From the NCBI RefSeq assembly GCF_021010565.1, contig NZ_JAJNAY010000002.1:310001-374000 (forward strand): DNA of 64,000 bases, in the 5' to 3' direction. Positions 57,912 through 64,000 of this stretch are shown here, piece by piece (the first letter of the stretch is position 1; every line of letters begins with the position of its first letter). The translations under genes were made by a program, and so were the position numbers. Below the pieces are notes generated by a model. It did not search any database. It was not told where the DNA came from and saw nothing but the letters and a program-made list of their open reading frames with translations. This DNA is from Chryseobacterium turcicum (lineage in GTDB: Bacteria > Bacteroidota > Bacteroidia > Flavobacteriales > Weeksellaceae).

Positions 57912-57998
57912 AGAGAGGTGTCCGAGTGGTTGAAGGAGCTACCCTGGAAAGGTAGTATGCGGGTAACTGTATCGAGGGTTCGAATCCCTTCCTCTCTG
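57912..57998 (+). tRNA. tRNA-Ser (anticodon GGA)
   Basis: The acceptor stem AGAGAGG pairs with CCTCTCT; the discriminator G is at 57998. The anticodon stem CTACC/GGTAG encloses CTGGAAA (anticodon GGA). A long variable arm (GCGGGTAACTGT region) and the T arm GAGGG-TTCGAAT-CCCTT are typical of type II tRNAs. The 3' CCA is not encoded. A terminator follows directly. The integron-like region begins just downstream. Confidence 0.95.
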
Positions 57999-57999
57999 C

Positions 58000-58029
58000 A
58001 AAAGCGTTGATTTTTCAACGCTTTTTTTT
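58000..58029 (+). terminator. tRNA-Ser terminator
   Basis: AAAGCGTTGA and TCAACGCTTTT pair around a T-rich loop with a run of eight T. Confidence 0.92.
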
Positions 58030-58038
58030 GTTTGAAAA

Positions 58039-58199: not shown

Positions 58200-58390
58200 T
58201 AGCTTTTTTCCAGCCTCTTTTTCTTCACCAACAAATAATATAATTTTCTATCTGTTGTTGTGTAATATCTTTGGGTTTATTTAGCAGAAAGTCTAAAGGA
58301 AAGATGAGATGTAAACGTTTTTACACCTCTATCAGCATAACTTTGCATATGGACTATGGTTATAAATTGCTCTATTAATTTTTCGTTCAT
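58200..58390 (-). pseudogene. Degraded tyrosine recombinase/integrase (N-terminal relic)
   Basis: On the minus strand from an ATG at 58390 the frame reads MNEKLIEQFITIVHMQSYAD and then RGVKTFTSHLSFRL before a stop. The next frame continues NKPKDITQQQIENYII, and the first frame returns with LLVKKKRLEKS. Together these make the SAM-like N-terminal domain of an XerC/integron-type recombinase (...YxxxTxKTYTSHLxxFL...KPKDITxxxIENYIxxLxxxKxLSxS) with two frameshifts. The catalytic C-terminal domain is absent. Its position, divergent from the cassette-like array and next to its first GTTAGCG core, is where an integron integrase would lie. Confidence 0.6.
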
Positions 58391-58499
58391 TATTGCACTG
58401 CGTTTATCCAAATATAAATAACAAACTAATTTACAAACCGTTATAAAAACATTAAATAAGATAAGCGCAATTGTATATGTTTAGTATTAACGCAATGCG

Positions 58500-58518
58500 T
58501 AAATTTGGATGTTAGCGG
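58500..58518 (+). promoter_or_regulatory. Candidate attI-like core plus promoter (Pc-like)
   Basis: TAAATTTG (58500-58507), an exact -7 box, is followed four bases later by GTTAGCGG (58511-58518), the same kind of core that ends the downstream cassette repeats (for example GTTAGCGG at 63270). A promoter here would read into the first cassette gene at 58557. No clear -33 TTG at the usual spacing. Confidence 0.5.
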
Positions 58519-58556
58519 TAATTTTAGCAGACCGAACGAAACAGAATAAGAACAAG

Positions 58557-59471
58557 ATGAAAATATTACTTTTTACACTATTATTATTTCAAAATTTCAC
58601 ATACTCACAAAGGGTAGATTTAAGAAAATTGACTTTAAATAGCAACATCATTCTTTTTGTTGAAAGAAATGACTTTGATTATTATTCAAAAATTAAAAAT
58701 GACCATTTTAGCGAGAATAAAATAAAAATAAAATCAACACAACAAATATTAAAAAATAATGTAACTGAAAATTTTCTTAACACATACATTCCTGTTCCAA
58801 AAGAAGGAAATGATTTTTATGACAACGGGAGAATAAATGGTGAGGACTTTATGGGAGTTGGCGAAATAGCAGAACCAAACAAAAAATATTACAGTATTCT
58901 TTTTTTGAAAAAACAAAAATCAAAACTCATTTTGTTAGCACATATAAACAGAAGTGATTTTGATTGGAAAGAACTCATAAAAAAAATTAATGACATTCAA
59001 GAAATAGAAAATACAACTTCACAAAAAGAAACTTACAAAAAAAACATAGATTATTACCTTAAATATGATGATTATCCCAGCTATGAATTTATTGAATATT
59101 ACAAAAATATAAATATTTTGAAATCAGATAGTTTAGTATTGGATAACAACCAATTAATTGTAGCCAAAGAAAAATTTCTAAATGGAATAGAGAGATATTA
59201 TGACTTAGTATGGAATAAATTTCCAAAAGAAATTTCTAAATATTATATACAGAAAATGAAAAAAATAAGTCAAACCGAAAATGAAGAAGAAATTTCCTTT
59301 TACGATTTTCAAGAAGCCTACGAAAGAGCAACTCACACAGGATTTATGGACGATAGTGAAATGGGAAAATTAAAGAATAAGCTTTTTGGCAATGACGAAG
59401 CAATATTTGAAGAAAAACAGAAAATAATGAAAACCTTAATCGAAAACGCAGAAAACAAAAACTACCGCTAA
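58557..59471 (+). CDS. Cassette gene 1: exported protein of unknown function
   Basis: 304 aa from the ATG at 58557 (MKILLFTLLLFQNFTYSQ, a signal peptide); an in-frame ATG at 58509 overlaps the GTTAGCG core and adds 16 polar residues. The mature protein is Lys/Asn/Glu-rich with no family I recognise (FVERNDFDYYSKIKNDHFSE, DSEMGKLKNKLFGNDEAIFE). Its stop codon TAA (59469-59471) lies within the GCTAAC core of the following repeat, as in integron cassettes. First unit of the cassette-like array, same strand as the others. Confidence 0.75.
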   Translation: MKILLFTLLLFQNFTYSQRVDLRKLTLNSNIILFVERNDFDYYSKIKNDHFSENKIKIKSTQQILKNNVTENFLNTYIPVPKEGNDFYDNGRINGEDFMGVGEIAEPNKKYYSILFLKKQKSKLILLAHINRSDFDWKELIKKINDIQEIENTTSQKETYKKNIDYYLKYDDYPSYEFIEYYKNINILKSDSLVLDNNQLIVAKEKFLNGIERYYDLVWNKFPKEISKYYIQKMKKISQTENEEEISFYDFQEAYERATHTGFMDDSEMGKLKNKLFGNDEAIFEEKQKIMKTLIENAENKNYR

Positions 59472-59597
59472 CAAGGTATTGCCAAAAGCGTGGCTGAACA
59501 GCTTCGATTGGGCATTTGTGCAAAATTCAACATTCGTTCGTCGATTGAACTTTAGTGCAAAAAATCCCCGCCTTCGGCAATACCCAGTCCGTTACTG
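59466..59597 (+). repeat. attC-like recombination repeat 1
   Basis: 132 bp starting at the core GCTAAC (59467) and ending at GTTACTG (59591-59597). Arms: GGTATTGCC (59475-59483) and GGCAATACC (59576-59584) match exactly; the stem extends with GCGTGG facing CCCCGC after a 4-nt internal loop. The loop holds a direct repeat (TCGATTG...TGCAAAA twice). Size and layout resemble an integron attC (the Vibrio repeats are ~125 bp). It follows cassette gene 1. Confidence 0.7.
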
Positions 59598-59630
59598 TAA
59601 TCTCCTCCAAAATCGCGCAATAAACTGAAT

Positions 59631-60362
59631 ATGAAAAATTTAATTATCCTTTTCGCACTTTTGATTCCCTTTATAAGTTATGCTCAAAATAAAAAATTAA
59701 ATTCTGAGACTAGGACAAAACAACTAAAATTGCAAAATCAAGAAAACGCACTGGATTTTAAAAGATTACAAAAGGAATTATCCGAAAAAGACAGCATAAA
59801 TAAAGGTCCATTTACTTATGGAATTTTCCCTTATCCTGATTATGATAGTATAAGTAAAAAAACATTCTCCGGAATTGGTACAACAGGAAATTTTTACGGA
59901 ATAAATTTAAACGGAAAAAAAATAGTTTACACAAGTTTTTCTGAGAATAAAAATAGTTTGAATAATTATAGAGTTAAGGAAAATAATAGAATATTCTTTA
60001 CGATTGTAGTTCTAACAGATTTTATTGATGAAAAAAATTTCAAGTCTATGAAATCTCAAATAGTTTCTAGAAATTTTCCAGATGTAATTGGTCAAGGATA
60101 TATAAAAACGAAAGAAAACAAAATAGATTTCTCTGCTTTTGTGACCCTTGAAAATGATGAATTCGCTATAATTAATATGAAATTGTACAACCTAAAATAT
60201 GGCAATATAATTTTAATTGCTCCTCAAAAAGAGGGAAGTTTAAGAAGTATTCAAATTTTAGCAGATGAAAACTTAACAACAGAAAATATAAAAATGAATG
60301 TTGAAAAACTTCTTAAAAATCAACAAATAAAATCATTCTTCACAAATGAAAATGTAATTTAA
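59631..60362 (+). CDS. Cassette gene 2: exported protein of unknown function
   Basis: 243 aa with a signal peptide (MKNLIILFALLIPFISYAQ). A charged helical stretch follows (NSETRTKQLKLQNQENALDF), then a mixed alpha/beta domain (YGIFPYPDYDSISKKTFSGI, FFTIVVLTDFIDEKNFKSM). No family recognised. It starts 40 bp after the GTTA core of repeat 1 and ends 12 bp before the core of repeat 2. Confidence 0.75.
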   Translation: MKNLIILFALLIPFISYAQNKKLNSETRTKQLKLQNQENALDFKRLQKELSEKDSINKGPFTYGIFPYPDYDSISKKTFSGIGTTGNFYGINLNGKKIVYTSFSENKNSLNNYRVKENNRIFFTIVVLTDFIDEKNFKSMKSQIVSRNFPDVIGQGYIKTKENKIDFSAFVTLENDEFAIINMKLYNLKYGNIILIAPQKEGSLRSIQILADENLTTENIKMNVEKLLKNQQIKSFFTNENVI

Positions 60363-60373
60363 AAAGAGACTAC

Positions 60374-60425
60374 AGTTAACAAGGTATTGTAAAAAGCGGG
60401 GCTGATGTGCTTCGATTGCCCCACC
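60374..60425 (+). repeat. attC-like repeat 2, left part
   Basis: Begins AGTTAACAAGGTATTGTAAA and continues AAGCGGGGCTGATGTGCTTC then GATTG, matching repeats 1 and 4. The usual right arm (GGCAATACC) does not follow; instead an IS110-family element begins within the next ~40 bp. The right part probably lies at 61761-61779. Confidence 0.65.
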
Positions 60426-60477
60426 ATCGCAAAGATTCTGTGTTAACTTCCAAATATTTTTTAATATTTTTACAATC

Positions 60478-61542
60478 TTAAAGCGACCCAGAGTCAGCTT
60501 CTGTAGGGTGAAAATCTTTTGTGGTTTTCGCCCTATTTTCTTCAAAATTGACCTCGTAAAATGTTTTTGTCTTGTATAAAATATACATTAATTCTAATAA
60601 TTTTCGCTGGACAGCAACCAAACCTTTCATTTTAATCCCCGTTTTGCTCACGATTCGATGAAATAATTCACGATGCTCTTGATTGAGTCTCACCGCTGTC
60701 ATCGATGGAAAATGAAGCGTTTTACGCAAATTCTTATTCCCCTTTTTGCTGATTCTCGGCTTGCCTTTTACTGATGTTCCTGATTGTTTTTCCCGAATAT
60801 CTAAGCCTGCATAACTTGTTAACTGTTTCTTGTTTCTAATCAATTCAAATCCATTGGTTTCTGCTAAAACCGCAATGGCGGTAGCTTTTCCAACACCCGG
60901 AATGCTACTCAGAAAACCCATACCCAGCGTAGCTTCACTGCTATTCCCCACTTCTTTCAGCATATCGGTATTGATTTCTTTTTCCTGCTTTTCAAGCAAA
61001 GTAATTCGTACCTTCAGACGTTTTAATGTTTTGGCATTGGGCAAAGCTTCCACTTTTTCGGCATGAAGCTGATTCATGCACACCACACGCTCGCTGATTA
61101 CTTGATTTTTCTCCCGACTAAGCTGCTGAAGCTCTTTGTACACCTTGTTGGCAGGTTGCCATTCTTCTAATTTTCTGCTCAATCCAAACTGGGCAATAGC
61201 GATGGAACAACTCTTATCGGTAATCGTTTTAATATCTAAAGTCCGCATGAAATTGCTGATCTTATTGGGCAAAACAATAACCACTTTTTCTCCTTTTGAA
61301 TGAAGATAATAAGCAAATCTTTCGTGATAAACACCTGTAGATTCCATCACAAAAAGAACTTCTACATCGACAGATTTTTTCTTAAAAACCCAATCCAGCA
61401 AAGATTTAAATCCTTTTTCAGTATTCCTGAAAACTTGATACTCTTTCGTGCATGTCGTCAAATCGTCTTGCAATTGACCTAAAGAAACCACCAATTCGTC
61501 TTGCGCAACATCAACTCCTAAAACCTGTTTTAATACTTTCAT
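60478..61542 (-). CDS. IS110-family transposase
   Basis: 354 aa. N-terminal DEDD domain: LGVDVAQDELVVSLGQLQDD, FVMESTGVYHERFAYYL, and IKTITDKSCSIAIAQFG carry the expected acidic residues (D, E, D). The C-terminal Transposase_20 domain follows with SSIPGVGKATAIAVLAETNG, QLTSYAGLDIREKQSGTSVK and LRKTLHFPSMTAVRLNQEHR. The length is normal and the frame intact, so it could be active. Members use a structured RNA from the non-coding end to pick donor and target. Confidence 0.93.
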   Translation of the reverse strand: MKVLKQVLGVDVAQDELVVSLGQLQDDLTTCTKEYQVFRNTEKGFKSLLDWVFKKKSVDVEVLFVMESTGVYHERFAYYLHSKGEKVVIVLPNKISNFMRTLDIKTITDKSCSIAIAQFGLSRKLEEWQPANKVYKELQQLSREKNQVISERVVCMNQLHAEKVEALPNAKTLKRLKVRITLLEKQEKEINTDMLKEVGNSSEATLGMGFLSSIPGVGKATAIAVLAETNGFELIRNKKQLTSYAGLDIREKQSGTSVKGKPRISKKGNKNLRKTLHFPSMTAVRLNQEHRELFHRIVSKTGIKMKGLVAVQRKLLELMYILYKTKTFYEVNFEENRAKTTKDFHPTEADSGSL

Positions 61543-61760
61543 ATCCTTAAATTTTAAAAAAGCAAAATCTTCCTCCGTTTTGTCTCCTAACTGTTATTCA
61601 AGATGTTTCTGAAACTCTTTACATTCTGTTCAAACTCTAAAAGAAGTAAAGGAATGAGGATGTTTCTTTGCGAGAATATATCTTTAAGATTATTGAGCCC
61701 CAAATCTTCTCTCATTCCTTTTGCTTTTATTCACAAATTTATTAATTTGCAAACATAGGA
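61543..61760 (-). ncRNA. Candidate IS110 bridge-RNA region
   Basis: The non-coding end upstream of the transposase (minus strand) is ~215 bp, the location of bridge RNAs in IS110-group elements. It contains an inverted repeat AAAGGAATGAG (61648-61658) / CTCATTCCTTT (61711-61721) enclosing a ~50-nt loop, and the 10-mer GAGCCCCAAA (61695-61704) is repeated at 61761-61770, next to the presumed right boundary. RNA production and target pairing are inferred, not shown. Confidence 0.45.
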
Positions 61761-61779
61761 GAGCCCCAAACAGTTAATC
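61761..61779 (+). repeat. attC-like repeat 2, right part (candidate)
   Basis: GAGCCCCAAACAGTTAATC resembles the right ends of the other repeats (CCCAAAACGTTAACT at 63984-63998), with a GTTAATC core at 61773. If correct, it is the other half of the repeat begun at 60374 and interrupted by the IS. Confidence 0.4.
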
Positions 61780-61810
61780 GACATTTTATCTAAACTCACG
61801 TCAATAAAAA

Positions 61811-62326
61811 ATGAAAAAGAAAATTTTATTTTTTTCAGCCTCAATATTTATTTTTATTATTTTTATTTCAACAAAACTAAATTTAAATCCAAATTTTGCC
61901 GATTTTGAAATTGAAAAAATATTCTATAAGAATTACTTTCCTGAACCTGCAAATACTAAAACTTACGCGTCTTCTCTTATTTATGAAAATGAGAATAGTC
62001 TAACTTTTCCGAGAAACAAACCGCAAAAAATAATTCTTTATTCAAATCATAATTGGCTGAAAAATAAGTATGAACTAAATGATGATGAAAGTTCTAAGCT
62101 TTTAAAAATCCTTAATGACAGCACAAAATATAGATGGGGAGAATTAGGTACCCCAGAAGTTCATTACTACTTTAAATACTTTGACGAAAAAAATAATCTG
62201 ATTGGAATCACAAAAATTGACCAAGAAGGTATGGCATATTCTGAACCATATTTAGCAAAAATGAAATGGTGTGAAATAAAAAATATTAATGAAATAAATA
62301 ATTTAATAAAAGAAATTGAAAAATAA
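61811..62326 (+). CDS. Cassette gene 3: membrane-anchored protein of unknown function
   Basis: 171 aa. An N-terminal hydrophobic segment (about 5-23; ILFFSASIFIFIIFISTKL) without a clear cleavage site suggests a membrane anchor. The rest (~145 residues) is polar with a GELGTPEVHYYFKYFDEKNN strand-rich part and ends with a helix (INEINNLIKEIEK). No family recognised. It lies between the IS-interrupted repeat and repeat 3. Confidence 0.75.
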   Translation: MKKKILFFSASIFIFIIFISTKLNLNPNFADFEIEKIFYKNYFPEPANTKTYASSLIYENENSLTFPRNKPQKIILYSNHNWLKNKYELNDDESSKLLKILNDSTKYRWGELGTPEVHYYFKYFDEKNNLIGITKIDQEGMAYSEPYLAKMKWCEIKNINEINNLIKEIEK

Positions 62327-62333
62327 AAACGTC

Positions 62334-62469
62334 GCGTAACAAGGATGGGTTTTGCACTAGTGGAGAGAAACTGCAAAGTTCAACGATTCTACTTCGGTTC
62401 AACATTTGTGCAAAATTGAAGTTTTGTGCTTATATTGCCTTGCCTTCAGCAATATCCAAAACGTTAACA
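62334..62469 (+). repeat. attC-like recombination repeat 3
   Basis: 136 bp from GCGTAAC (62334-62340) to GTTAACA (62463-62469). It begins ACAAGG like the others and ends GCCTTCAGCAATATCCAAAA before GTTAACA. The arms are less conserved (GGATGGGTTTTGC against GCAATATCC). The loop region has the TTCAACATTTGTGCAAAATT fragment also found in repeat 1. Confidence 0.6.
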
Positions 62470-62477
62470 ATAATACT

Positions 62478-63131
62478 ATGACCGACCAACAAGCAATAGA
62501 ACTTATTGAAAAAGAATTCAAGGAAAGGATACTTGGAGTGACTGAACAATATCTTGAAATCCACAATCCAATCTCTATAGATAATAAACTAAAAATTGAC
62601 CGTATTGACCGAGACAGAAAAGACGAAATAATTATAGCTTACCTACCAATAGTTGACGAAAGATTTTATTTTGCAGTTTACATTGACACAAAGGCACATG
62701 AAATAACAGGTATTGGAACAGAAGCATTTCACAGAGTTTGTTTCAGAGCAACATCGGAAGCTCTAACTGTGGACGACATAAAAGCAATGACACATTTGAT
62801 GCCAACTGAATTTTGGAACAAAGGAGACTTGAAGCCAAACGGAAAATCAAATCATACGTTTAGCAGTTTTAAAATCCTACCTAATCCTGAACCAGATGAG
62901 TTTGAAGACAAACTAAAAAAACTACTTGACTTTTTGGAACAAGATAAAGATGGAATAAAACAACTTACGGAAAAAGCAGAAGGCTATATTCAGGTTACTA
63001 TGGACATTCATAATGCAAATGGAATGATTGGCGGACACAACATTGACACAAACAACATACGAAGGATGAACGACTTGAAATTATCAATAAATTTTGACCT
63101 TTATGTGGGTGGAAAAAGCTTTAAGGAATAG
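62478..63131 (+). CDS. Cassette gene 4: DUF4279-like protein
   Basis: 217 aa from the ATG at 62478; an upstream in-frame TTG at 62406 would reach into the repeat and is rejected. The N-terminal ~85 residues (TDQQAIELIEKEFKERILGV) form one compact domain. The C-terminal ~110 residues, with LDFLEQDKDGIKQLTEKAEG and DLKLSINFDLYVGG, resemble DUF4279. No signal peptide, so cytosolic. It starts 15 bp after the GTTA core and ends 12 bp before the next core. Confidence 0.7.
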   Translation: MTDQQAIELIEKEFKERILGVTEQYLEIHNPISIDNKLKIDRIDRDRKDEIIIAYLPIVDERFYFAVYIDTKAHEITGIGTEAFHRVCFRATSEALTVDDIKAMTHLMPTEFWNKGDLKPNGKSNHTFSSFKILPNPEPDEFEDKLKKLLDFLEQDKDGIKQLTEKAEGYIQVTMDIHNANGMIGGHNIDTNNIRRMNDLKLSINFDLYVGGKSFKE

Positions 63132-63142
63132 AGAACTACTAC

Positions 63143-63276
63143 AGCTAACATGGTATTGCCAAAAGCAGGGCTGAAGTAATTCTCTATTGAACTTTTTGTT
63201 TATATTTAAACTGTGGTATTTCTGTTAATCTTGGATAGAAAAATTTCCGCCTTCAGCAATAGCCGGAACGTTAGCG
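63143..63276 (+). repeat. attC-like recombination repeat 4
   Basis: 134 bp from AGCTAAC (63143-63149) to GTTAGCG (63270-63276). Arms GGTATTGCC (63152-63160) and GCAATAGCC (63256-63264) pair, flanked by AAAAGCAGGG facing CCGCCTTC. The loop (AAGTAATTCTCTATTGAACT, TTTTTGTTTATATTTAAACT) is shared closely with repeat 5. Confidence 0.7.
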
Positions 63277-63322
63277 GTCAGGCTGACAGAACCCAACGAA
63301 GAACAACCTTAATAAAAATTGA

Positions 63323-63844
63323 ATGAAATTTTGGATTAGAATAATTTTACTGACAATATTCGATTTTGCAATAATTTGGTTATGGATTAAACAAATGAAC
63401 CCTGATCCAAGCATTTCAATTGGAATTTTAATACTTGTTCCATTTGTTGTTATCTTGAATTTAATTATTGCTTTGATTTTATACTTTACAAAAAGAGAAT
63501 TTGTTTCTTTATTTGTAGTCAACTCAATTATTGCTGGAATATTAATGTTCTATTTATTTGGTAAAGGCATTGATAGATATCAAAATGAAAGACTTGAAAT
63601 TTGGAGCTTTAAATTGCAAAACACGACTTATGTAATTACACATTGGAAACTCGAAAATACTTTTAGTATGAGTGAAACCAATAACCCTGGTTCTTCAACA
63701 GTTTTTTTAAACGGAAAATTTATAAAAAAAGGAAATGAATATTATCTGACGACAGATACAACTGAATTTATTATCAAGAACGAATATTTTTATAAATTCA
63801 GAACTGAAAATGACAGTATAAAGTTGACAAAAATTGAAAGATAA
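63323..63844 (+). CDS. Cassette gene 5: membrane protein of unknown function
   Basis: 173 aa with three hydrophobic segments in the first ~80 residues (IILLTIFDFAIIWLWI, ISIGILILVPFVVILNLIIA, SLFVVNSIIAGILMFYLFG), then a soluble C-terminal domain of about 90 residues rich in beta strands (TTYVITHWKLENTFSMSETN). No family recognised. It starts 53 bp after the GTTAGCG core of repeat 4 and is followed by repeat 5. Confidence 0.75.
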   Translation: MKFWIRIILLTIFDFAIIWLWIKQMNPDPSISIGILILVPFVVILNLIIALILYFTKREFVSLFVVNSIIAGILMFYLFGKGIDRYQNERLEIWSFKLQNTTYVITHWKLENTFSMSETNNPGSSTVFLNGKFIKKGNEYYLTTDTTEFIIKNEYFYKFRTENDSIKLTKIER

Positions 63845-63867
63845 CCGAACAAATAAAAAGCCCGAAT

Positions 63868-63998
63868 CGCTAACAAGGTATTGTTAAAAGAAGGACTTAA
63901 GTAATTCTATTGAACTTTTTGTTATATTTAAACTATGGTATTTCTATTGAGCTTGGATGCAAAAATTCCCGTCTTTGGCAGTACCCAAAACGTTAACT
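63868..63998 (+). repeat. attC-like recombination repeat 5
   Basis: 131 bp from CGCTAAC (63868-63874) to GTTAACT (63992-63998), at the window edge. It shares nearly the whole loop with repeat 4. The right arm reads GCCGTACC-like (GGCAGTACCCAAAA). The window ends two bases later, so another cassette probably continues outside. Confidence 0.65.
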
Positions 63999-64000
63999 GT

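What the first reader, a model, noticed from the sequence alone, without database searches (positions are those of the whole stretch)
58500..64000. Integron-like cassette array in a Bacteroidetes chromosome
Five consecutive units each hold one plus-strand gene of unknown function. They are separated by ~131-136-bp imperfect palindromic repeats starting with (G/C)(C/T)TAAC-type cores and ending with GTTA-cores. Gene starts lie 15-53 bp after each GTTA core and stops lie 0-25 bp before the next TAAC core (in unit 1 the stop codon is inside the core). A recombinase relic lies divergently upstream next to the first GTTAGCG. This is the full plan of an integron: intI - attI/Pc - cassettes with attC sites. 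Mobile integrons of Proteobacteria are well known; an array of this type in Flavobacteriia, with an extended ~130-bp site, seems little described.
Basis: partly seen in the sequence, partly recalled or inferred. Interest (0 to 1): 0.95.

Follow-up and report, generated by a model that had tools for sequence, protein, structure and literature searches.

The report
Bacteroidota integron without canonical integrase
This stretch of Chryseobacterium DNA holds five genes, each followed by a hairpin-forming site, that are likely exchangeable cassettes of a little-noticed integron-like system found in many Bacteroidota, likely moved by a recombinase that lacks the extra domain of standard integron integrases; the same kind of site also sits directly behind antibiotic-resistance genes on plasmids.

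Summary
Relatives show what it was. Intact copies sit divergently beside the same attI-like sequence and different cassettes, in four species at the same tRNA-flanked locus. In 87 cassettes the two ends are complementary (8.2 of 10 positions, against 4.7 for the two ends of one site), placing the crossover at GTTA. Reconstituted sites fold better as the bottom strand in 75 of 81. A 99.8%-identical cassette lies behind attI in one genome and inside an array in another, both ends at the core. Sites occur in 160 of 395 sampled Bacteroidota genomes, go with this recombinase (OR 9.9) and not with canonical IntI (OR 0.42). The recombinase lacks 41 residues of IntI, and most folded sites lack extrahelical bases: it works like an integron but is not a canonical one. 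The same sites follow lnu(H), arr and (as a half-site, behind an N-truncated relative of the recombinase) tet(X3) on plasmids. No recombination was assayed. The window's own array is probably immobile now.

The parts
57912..57998 (+). tRNA gene, left flank of the locus, conserved at the same place in C. aahli
   Evidence: Rfam tRNA 56 bits; window 57927-58033 is 98% identical to L048
58202..58390 (-). relic of the recombinase gene: about codons 1-66 with an in-frame stop and gaps, rest deleted
   Evidence: tblastn of P0001 E=2.6e-10; blastn 75% over 333 nt, window 58218-58533
58461..58514 (+). attI-like site: ACGCAATGCGT palindrome, TAAATTTG (resembles a Bacteroidota -7 box, recalled; promoter role inferred), then the GTTAGCGG junction
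   Evidence: a like block was found in 18 of 25 Chryseobacterium/Epilithonimonas recombinase neighbourhoods searched with one fixed motif (L109-L128, L159-L163) and in the window; sequence
58557..59471 (+). cassette 1 gene, 304 aa, secretion-signal-like N-terminus (by eye), no Pfam match
59469..59594 (+). attC-like site S1 (type A stem GGTATTGCC/GGCAATACC)
   Evidence: R1 E=1.8e-22; bottom-strand fold z -4.35 against -3.13 for the top strand
59631..60362 (+). cassette 2 gene, 243 aa, no Pfam match
60377..60434 (+). attC-like site S2, left part, up to CATCGCAAAG where the insertion element begins
   Evidence: R1 E=0.051; sequence
60478..61542 (-). IS110-family transposase gene inside site S2 (element ends not defined)
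   Evidence: PF02371 6e-24, PF01548 4e-21; only full-length copy found in the genome
61763..61776 (+). attC-like site S2, right end with GTTA 61773-61776 (left border of this piece approximate)
   Evidence: sequence
61811..62326 (+). cassette 3 gene, 171 aa, no Pfam match
62337..62466 (+). attC-like site S3, chimera of a type B 5' half and a type A 3' half
   Evidence: R1 E=3.6e-13
62478..63131 (+). cassette 4 gene, 217 aa, C-terminal DUF4279
   Evidence: PF14106 3.7e-16
63146..63273 (+). attC-like site S4 (type A)
   Evidence: R1 E=1.9e-19
63323..63844 (+). cassette 5 gene, 173 aa, membrane-protein-like (by eye), no significant Pfam match
63871..63995 (+). attC-like site S5 (type A)
   Evidence: R1 1.2e-16 in the uncut copy, L031 3865-4001

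Best explanation
This is the decayed end-product of an integron-like platform: single genes flanked by attC-like sites that were likely captured at an attI-like site by an Xer/IntI-type tyrosine recombinase lacking the IntI-specific domain. Shown from sequence: cassette ends at the GTTA core; hairpin sites whose bottom strand is predicted to fold better; near-identical cassettes in different positions and genomes; an intact recombinase plus attI plus variable cassettes at the same locus in sister species; and association of sites with this recombinase across a phylum sample. Inferred: the recombinase itself does the moving; it acts on the folded bottom strand, marked by conserved A.C/G.T positions instead of extrahelical bases; cassettes enter at attI and may be expressed from a promoter in attI. 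In the window the recombinase is a relic and one site is split by IS110, so the array is probably immobile unless a recombinase acts in trans.
For: (a) Ends: in 87 cassettes R'' plus flank is complementary to the cassette's own 5' end at 8.22 of 10 positions, against 4.70 for the R' of the same site and 4.34 for random pairs; better 74 times, worse 7, tied 6, p=3e-15; position 11 is a fixed mismatch, 3% matched. (b) Movement: G116 and G011 share 1154 nt at 99.8% from GTTA to the next core, behind attI in G011 and mid-array in G116; G105 and G116 share a cassette at 99.5%, behind attI in G105 (right end runs into N in G116); G041 and G110 share 684 nt at 92.4%, left end exact and behind attI in G041, right end not at a core. 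(c) Locus: conserved flanks, different content in C. aahli, C. luquanense, C. formosus and G093 (names). (d) Fold: bottom strand better in 75 of 81, top in 5, p=1e-13; mean -29.3 against -25.7 kcal/mol, shuffles -13.0. (e) Neighbourhood: 23 of 52 short recombinase loci hold a site; five shuffled sets 0-3 of 52; other recombinase loci of the own genome 0 of 8. (f) Association in 395 genomes: both 83, sites only 77, recombinase only 23, neither 212, OR 9.9, p=1.6e-20. (g) Catalytic residues conserved.
Against: No recombination assay. 8 of 20 recombinase neighbourhoods showed no site to the detector (L112, L115, L119, L121, L122, L124, L126, L128), though R1 found sites in some of those genomes, in G041 inside L112 itself. 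In 80 named loci 39 sites lay on the divergent-side strand and 18 on the other: outside the genus the recombinase often points the same way as the array. The detector accepts only ungapped inner stems, which biases against extrahelical bases. 12 of 81 folds do have a single-base bulge and 10 of 81 no outer stem. S2/S3 in the window look like half-site chimeras that a crossover at GTTA does not explain.
Confidence: 0.87

Rival explanations
1. A dispersed palindromic intergenic repeat (MITE- or REP-like) that happens to sit behind single genes.
For: 29 of the 85 positive genomes have a single match.
Against: A self-mobile repeat would carry matching ends within one copy; here the matching ends are those of the gene-plus-site unit. 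Whole cassettes recur with ends at the core. Sites go with one recombinase family.
Confidence: 0.04
2. A canonical integron array whose IntI lies elsewhere (a CALIN).
For: Array plan, cores and bottom-strand folding are integron-like; canonical IntI exist in other classes of the phylum (105 of 395 genomes over cut-off), and 28 genomes with sites also match TIGR02249.
Against: No TIGR02249 match over cut-off in 148 Chryseobacterium genomes, and none listed in the own order among the 395. Sites are under-represented with canonical IntI (OR 0.42, p=5e-4). In 69 of 81 folds no single-base bulge was counted in the inner stem (10 of these lacked the outer stem and were not walked).
Confidence: 0.07
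3. Units shuffled only by homologous recombination between the long repeats.
For: Sites of one type are alike over 125 bp; S2/S3 chimeras; a tandem repeat of 1723 nt in G361.
Against: Homologous exchange would not pair R'' with the cassette's own 5' end. attI shares little beyond GTTA with the sites, yet the same cassettes sit behind it.
Confidence: 0.05

Closest known systems
Sedentary chromosomal integrons (IntI/attI/attC), e.g. of Vibrio cholerae
   Same: mostly single genes in one orientation, attC-like hairpins with RYYYAAC/GTTRRRY-type cores, crossover at the R' core, bottom-strand folding, recombinase plus attI at one end
   Different: recombinase lacks 41 residues of IntI; sites have a nearly unbroken stem with fixed A.C/G.T positions and, in most folds, no extrahelical bases; end complementarity spans 15 nt with one fixed mismatch; one-sided 4-nt spacer
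CALIN (attC clusters without integrase)
   Same: the window array has no functional recombinase next to it
   Different: here a relic remains and its intact form in sister species is not a canonical IntI
Archaeal integrons (PMC9668308, passages read)
   Same: integrons outside the classical hosts
   Different: those IntI are stated to keep the additional domain; these recombinases do not have it
Xer recombinases and XerA; pdif modules
   Same: closest solved structure by sequence and by fold is XerA 5hxy, with IntI4 2a3v next
   Different: pdif sites are 28 bp with XerC and XerD arms (PMC7530245, passages); here about 130-bp hairpin sites carried with each gene
xerD-tet(X)-res unit of Acinetobacter plasmids (PMC7530245, passages read)
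   Same: in pAI01 the tyrosine recombinase in front of tet(X3) is a relative of this recombinase (53% over 182 aa) and tet(X3) is followed by a half-site of this kind
   Different: described there as associated with ISCR2; the passages read do not call it an integron or cassette

Membership tests
integron (canonical) | tyrosine recombinase with catalytic R-K-H-R-H-Y | tested here: met
   in 21 relatives R227, H250, Y259 invariant and R135, K160, H224 at least 90%; window copy is a relic
integron (canonical) | IntI-specific additional domain (patch III region; PMC9668308, passages) | tested here: not met
   41 residues missing in all 6 patchless proteins aligned with 3 canonical IntI; 18 residues where IntI4 has 61; no TIGR02249 over cut-off in 148 genus genomes
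integron (canonical) | attI beside the integrase, receiving cassettes at GTT | tested here: met
   conserved block beside recombinase; three shared cassettes begin exactly at its GTTA; comparative only
integron (canonical) | attC sites with R''/R' cores and bottom-strand hairpin | tested here: met
   (predicted folds)
integron (canonical) | extrahelical bases in L'' and an unpaired central spacer (PMC2727003, passages) | tested here: not met
   spacer present (4-nt one-sided loop in 63 of 81 folds), but a single-base bulge in the inner 20 bp in only 12 of 81; the detector is biased against bulges
integron (canonical) | mobile cassettes exchanged as units | tested here: met
   (comparative, not experimental)
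integron (canonical) | cassette promoter Pc | tested here: inconclusive
   TAnnTTTG in 16 of the 19 attI-like blocks printed (counted by eye; box recalled); function not tested
CALIN | at least two attC less than 4 kb apart (PMC9668308), no integrase nearby | tested here: inconclusive
   sites clustered and no intact recombinase of this family found in the genome, but standard attC models were not available here
Xer/pdif module | 28-bp dif-like sites with XerC and XerD arms | tested here: not met
   the sites are 125-130 bp hairpins; no separate dif search was run

The most novel reading that the evidence does not exclude
Bacteroidota possess a second, largely unrecognised lineage of integrons. 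A compact recombinase without the IntI domain reads hairpins marked by G.T wobbles rather than bulged bases. It runs across the phylum beside, and mostly apart from, canonical IntI integrons, and it has supplied mobile resistance cassettes: arr and lnu(H) on Empedobacter plasmids and tet(X3), now in Acinetobacter, are cassettes of this system. The patchless enzymes may even be the stock from which IntI arose.
Probability: 0.6. Interest if true: 0.95.

Novelty: new variant of a known kind. Interest (0 to 1): 0.9.

Why it matters
Integrons are thought to rely on the extra IntI domain and bulged bases to handle single-stranded attC hairpins. A working system with neither would be a direct test of what those parts do. 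If right, integron-like gene exchange is common in a group where the survey read here reports one complete integron in the Bacteroidetes proper (PMC9024848, passages), and it gives a concrete origin for tet(X3), a mobile gene tied to tigecycline resistance.

Tried and rejected
Simple repeat and strict-stem scans missed most sites; a first detector with free spacer lengths was too noisy and was tightened. Some low-scoring sites look like chance hits (e.g. L111 12361, L117 3027 and 3992, L118 9494); later counts used score 11 or more. Rfam found no matching family for the sites. TIGR02249 in the own genome gave only matches under the cut-off, and at that loose threshold all 14 control genomes also ring. 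A tree of 26 recombinases is unresolved: canonical IntI group with one patchless protein (89/95), Xer-like rows sit on long branches, so no claim on ancestry is made from it. The idea that cassettes break in the middle of sites (from S2/S3) was dropped. R1 in 19 genomes behind loci with non-Bacteroidota titles: 2 positive, 5 matches, best 8e-10. A site query against 50,697 phage records: no match. Match counts are capped at 22 and 8 per genome.
Full report
WHAT IS IN THE WINDOW. The window is G000:C2:310001-374000 of a 4.48-Mb genome. Genomes of the same genus carry Chryseobacterium names (matched to handles by equal contig lengths). Positions 58,461-64,000 hold an attI-like block, five plus-strand genes and five sites. 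Model R1 finds in the 64 kb only these five sites at E<=1, apart from a minus-strand echo of S4; R1 was trained on S1 and S4 among 27 sites. S2 contains an IS110-family transposase gene: the left flank ends CATCGCAAAG and the right flank resumes AGCCCC..GTTA. Insertion of IS1111-type elements into attC is known (recalled, from no call). Divergently upstream lies the relic: about 66 codons with a stop and gaps. The array runs on to about C2:375,540 with probably two more genes.

HOW IT WAS CHECKED IN RELATIVES. TIGR02249 over 148 Chryseobacterium genomes gave no match over cut-off, but 18 genomes held a Xer-like protein at E<=1e-30 in open frames of 233-363 aa. Four of these loci (L048, L050, L051, and L052, the last interrupted by stops) encode close relatives of the window relic; L048 lies behind the same gene (asparaginase, named by eye) and tRNA. 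With P0001 (279 aa, C. aahli) as query, 26 of 148 genus genomes match at E<=1e-60 and 51 of 296 in the order; the own genome has none. R1 finds sites at E<=1e-3 in 85 of 148 genus genomes, 19 matches in the own genome; 29 of the 85 have one match, 43 three or more. At least two further arrays lie in the own genome, L034 (C1:1940001-1959900) and L033 (C2:545000-560000); both hold an ANT(6)-like nucleotidyltransferase gene (named by eye).

WHERE THE CROSSOVER LIES. In an integrated cassette the 5' end carries the R' bases that belonged to its own attC (established for integrons, recalled). I tested this on 87 distinct adjacent site pairs (score >=11, 200-2600 nt apart) from 40 fetched recombinase or array loci plus three own-genome arrays. 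Own-end complementarity is 8.22 of 10 against 4.70 (same site) and 4.34 (random); 74 better, 7 worse, 6 tied; p=3e-15; 43 of 87 are perfect over the first ten positions against 5 of 87. A first run on 29 pairs gave 21 against 3. Position 11 is matched in 3%: mostly A in the 5' end (98%) and C in the 3' end (82%), that is A.C on the top strand and G.T on the bottom. Pairs are not independent where genomes share cassettes.

THE SITES. Among 111 distinct sites, inner stem position 14 is Watson-Crick in 3% and bottom-strand wobble in 86%; position 11 is bottom wobble in 54%; position 5 is top-strand G.T in 71%; over 20 positions 260 bottom wobbles against 99 top. Other positions change on both arms between site types. 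Reconstituted as in a circle, 81 sites fold at mean -29.3 (bottom) and -25.7 kcal/mol (top), shuffles -13.0; bottom better in 75, top in 5. 69 of 81 bottom folds have a helix of 25 bp or more, 63 of 81 a one-sided 4-nt spacer loop, 12 of 81 a single-base bulge in the first 20 inner pairs, 10 of 81 no outer stem. Limits: the detector asks for ungapped stems and fixed spacers, so bulged sites are under-sampled; folded in integrated form, three of the four window sites tested were weak.

MOVEMENT. 91 cassettes were compared with all array loci; hits over half the cassette or more were kept. Six non-syntenic matches between genomes: G116/G011, 99.8% over 1154 nt, left end exactly at GTTA, right end at the next core, behind attI in G011 and behind an attC-like site in G116. 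G116/G105, 99.5% over 576 nt, left end exact and behind attI in G105, right end lost in N. G110/G041, 92.4% over 684 nt, left end exact and behind attI in G041, right end not at a core. G249/G011, 80.8%, both ends exact. G099/G116, 94.2%, right end exact, left end not. G099/G116 again (L169), 96.5% over 403 nt, neither end at a core. Within G324 a cassette recurs at 94.9% with both ends exact. At the window's own locus, C. aahli, C. luquanense, C. formosus and G093 share both flanks, while the stretch between differs in sequence and length (unaligned stretches up to 4.4 kb); C. aahli and G093 share part of it at 99.1%.

DISTRIBUTION AND ASSOCIATION. Of 52 short loci around recombinases of 37-100% identity, 23 hold a site; five shuffled sets gave 0-3 of 52, eight loci of other recombinases of the own genome none, and window 1-56,000 one chance hit. 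In 395 Bacteroidota genomes R1 (E<=1e-5) is positive in 160, 88 of 170 genera; the patchless recombinase (E<=1e-50) in 106; both 83, sites only 77, recombinase only 23, neither 212; OR 9.9, p=1.6e-20. Canonical IntI over cut-off: 105 genomes, one in the own class and none in the own order; sites are rarer in the 107 genomes that match TIGR02249 at E<=1e-55 (28 with both, OR 0.42, p=5e-4). Shared descent inflates such p-values; they are descriptive. In the genus the recombinase is mostly divergent from the array; in several other families sites lie on the recombinase's own strand.

THE RECOMBINASE. Catalytic residues and a C-terminal SPxD motif are shared with canonical IntI; 41 residues (31+10) of IntI are absent. 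P0001 scores 224.5 bits on NF040815 (over cut-off, named site-specific tyrosine recombinase/integron integrase) and 208.5 on TIGR02249 (cut-off 265). An AlphaFold model (pLDDT 85.6, pTM 0.62) matches XerA 5hxy, then IntI4 2a3v, both at TM about 0.55.

CARGO AND PLASMIDS. 75 cassette proteins (median 210 aa): 41 Pfam families, at most two members each; some match PADLOC models such as AriA/AriAB and PDC-S41. A site query matched 58 plasmid records, 46 of them Acinetobacter. I opened six. Empedobacter brevis pSE1-3-20kb: a site right behind arr (R1 8e-22), another right behind lnu(H) (2e-25), a third farther on (1e-13); E. falsenii p1681-tetX: a site behind lnu(H) (1e-16) and one more (2e-31). 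pAI01, pHH1107 and pJNE5-X3: tet(X3) followed after 20 bp by the same 73-nt half-site match. In pAI01 the 5'-truncated tyrosine recombinase in front is 53% identical to P0001 over 182 aa, and a palindrome plus GTTATGTGCC precedes tet(X3). R1 scores the half-site only 0.0018. That the other Acinetobacter matches are this unit is likely but was checked only in pAI01 and pJNE5-X3. A Myroides plasmid has a site (1e-22) near a recombinase gene.

LITERATURE. Searches listed no paper on such arrays in Flavobacteriia or on tet(X) as an integron cassette; subscription papers are not held and most listed papers were not opened. Passages read: PMC9024848 (in Bacteroidetes proper one complete integron, Salinibacter), PMC9668308 (IntI domain), PMC2727003 (EHB, UCS, bottom strand), PMC8352920 (eleven attC taxon models, none for Bacteroidetes), PMC8618304, PMC10500605 (both list Bacteroidota), PMC7530245 (xerD-tet(X)-res). 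All others were seen as search listings only.

VERDICT. It works like an integron. Two features that define canonical integrons were tested and not met, so it is filed as a new variant, not as a member. The moving enzyme and the strand are inferred.

Noticed in passing
L281:2031-4073 (pAI01), L285, L286: tet(X3) lies between a 5'-truncated relative of the patchless recombinase (sequence compared in pAI01 only) and a half attC-like site, suggesting it is a cassette of this system.
   Followed up: partly
L283:2849-5135: Two-cassette array, MarR-family gene plus arr, then lnu(H), each followed by a site, on a 20-kb Empedobacter brevis plasmid.
   Followed up: partly
window 60377-61776 and 62337-62466: S2 and S3 look like reciprocal chimeras of two site types around cassette 3, as if a unit with centre-to-centre borders had been inserted.
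   Followed up: partly
L172:5730 and 8181, L173 flipped 12887, L164 flipped 5385: Sites in three genomes are followed by the same or nearly the same sequence, CGTCAGGCTGTGAAAAAAC, perhaps a shared array end or an inserted element.
   Followed up: no
L034:12468-13445: A second, different IS110-type transposase gene (by eye) lies inside the C1 array of the own genome.
   Followed up: no
L034:2212-3063 and L033 from 8785: ANT(6)-like nucleotidyltransferase gene (by eye) present in two arrays of the own genome, in decayed surroundings.
   Followed up: no
G424, G433, G471, G651, G660: Recombinase and sites on the same strand, the reverse of the Chryseobacterium layout.
   Followed up: partly
G767 (locus titled uncultured Peptococcaceae MAG): Four R1 matches in a genome labelled as non-Bacteroidota; transfer or binning error.
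   Followed up: no
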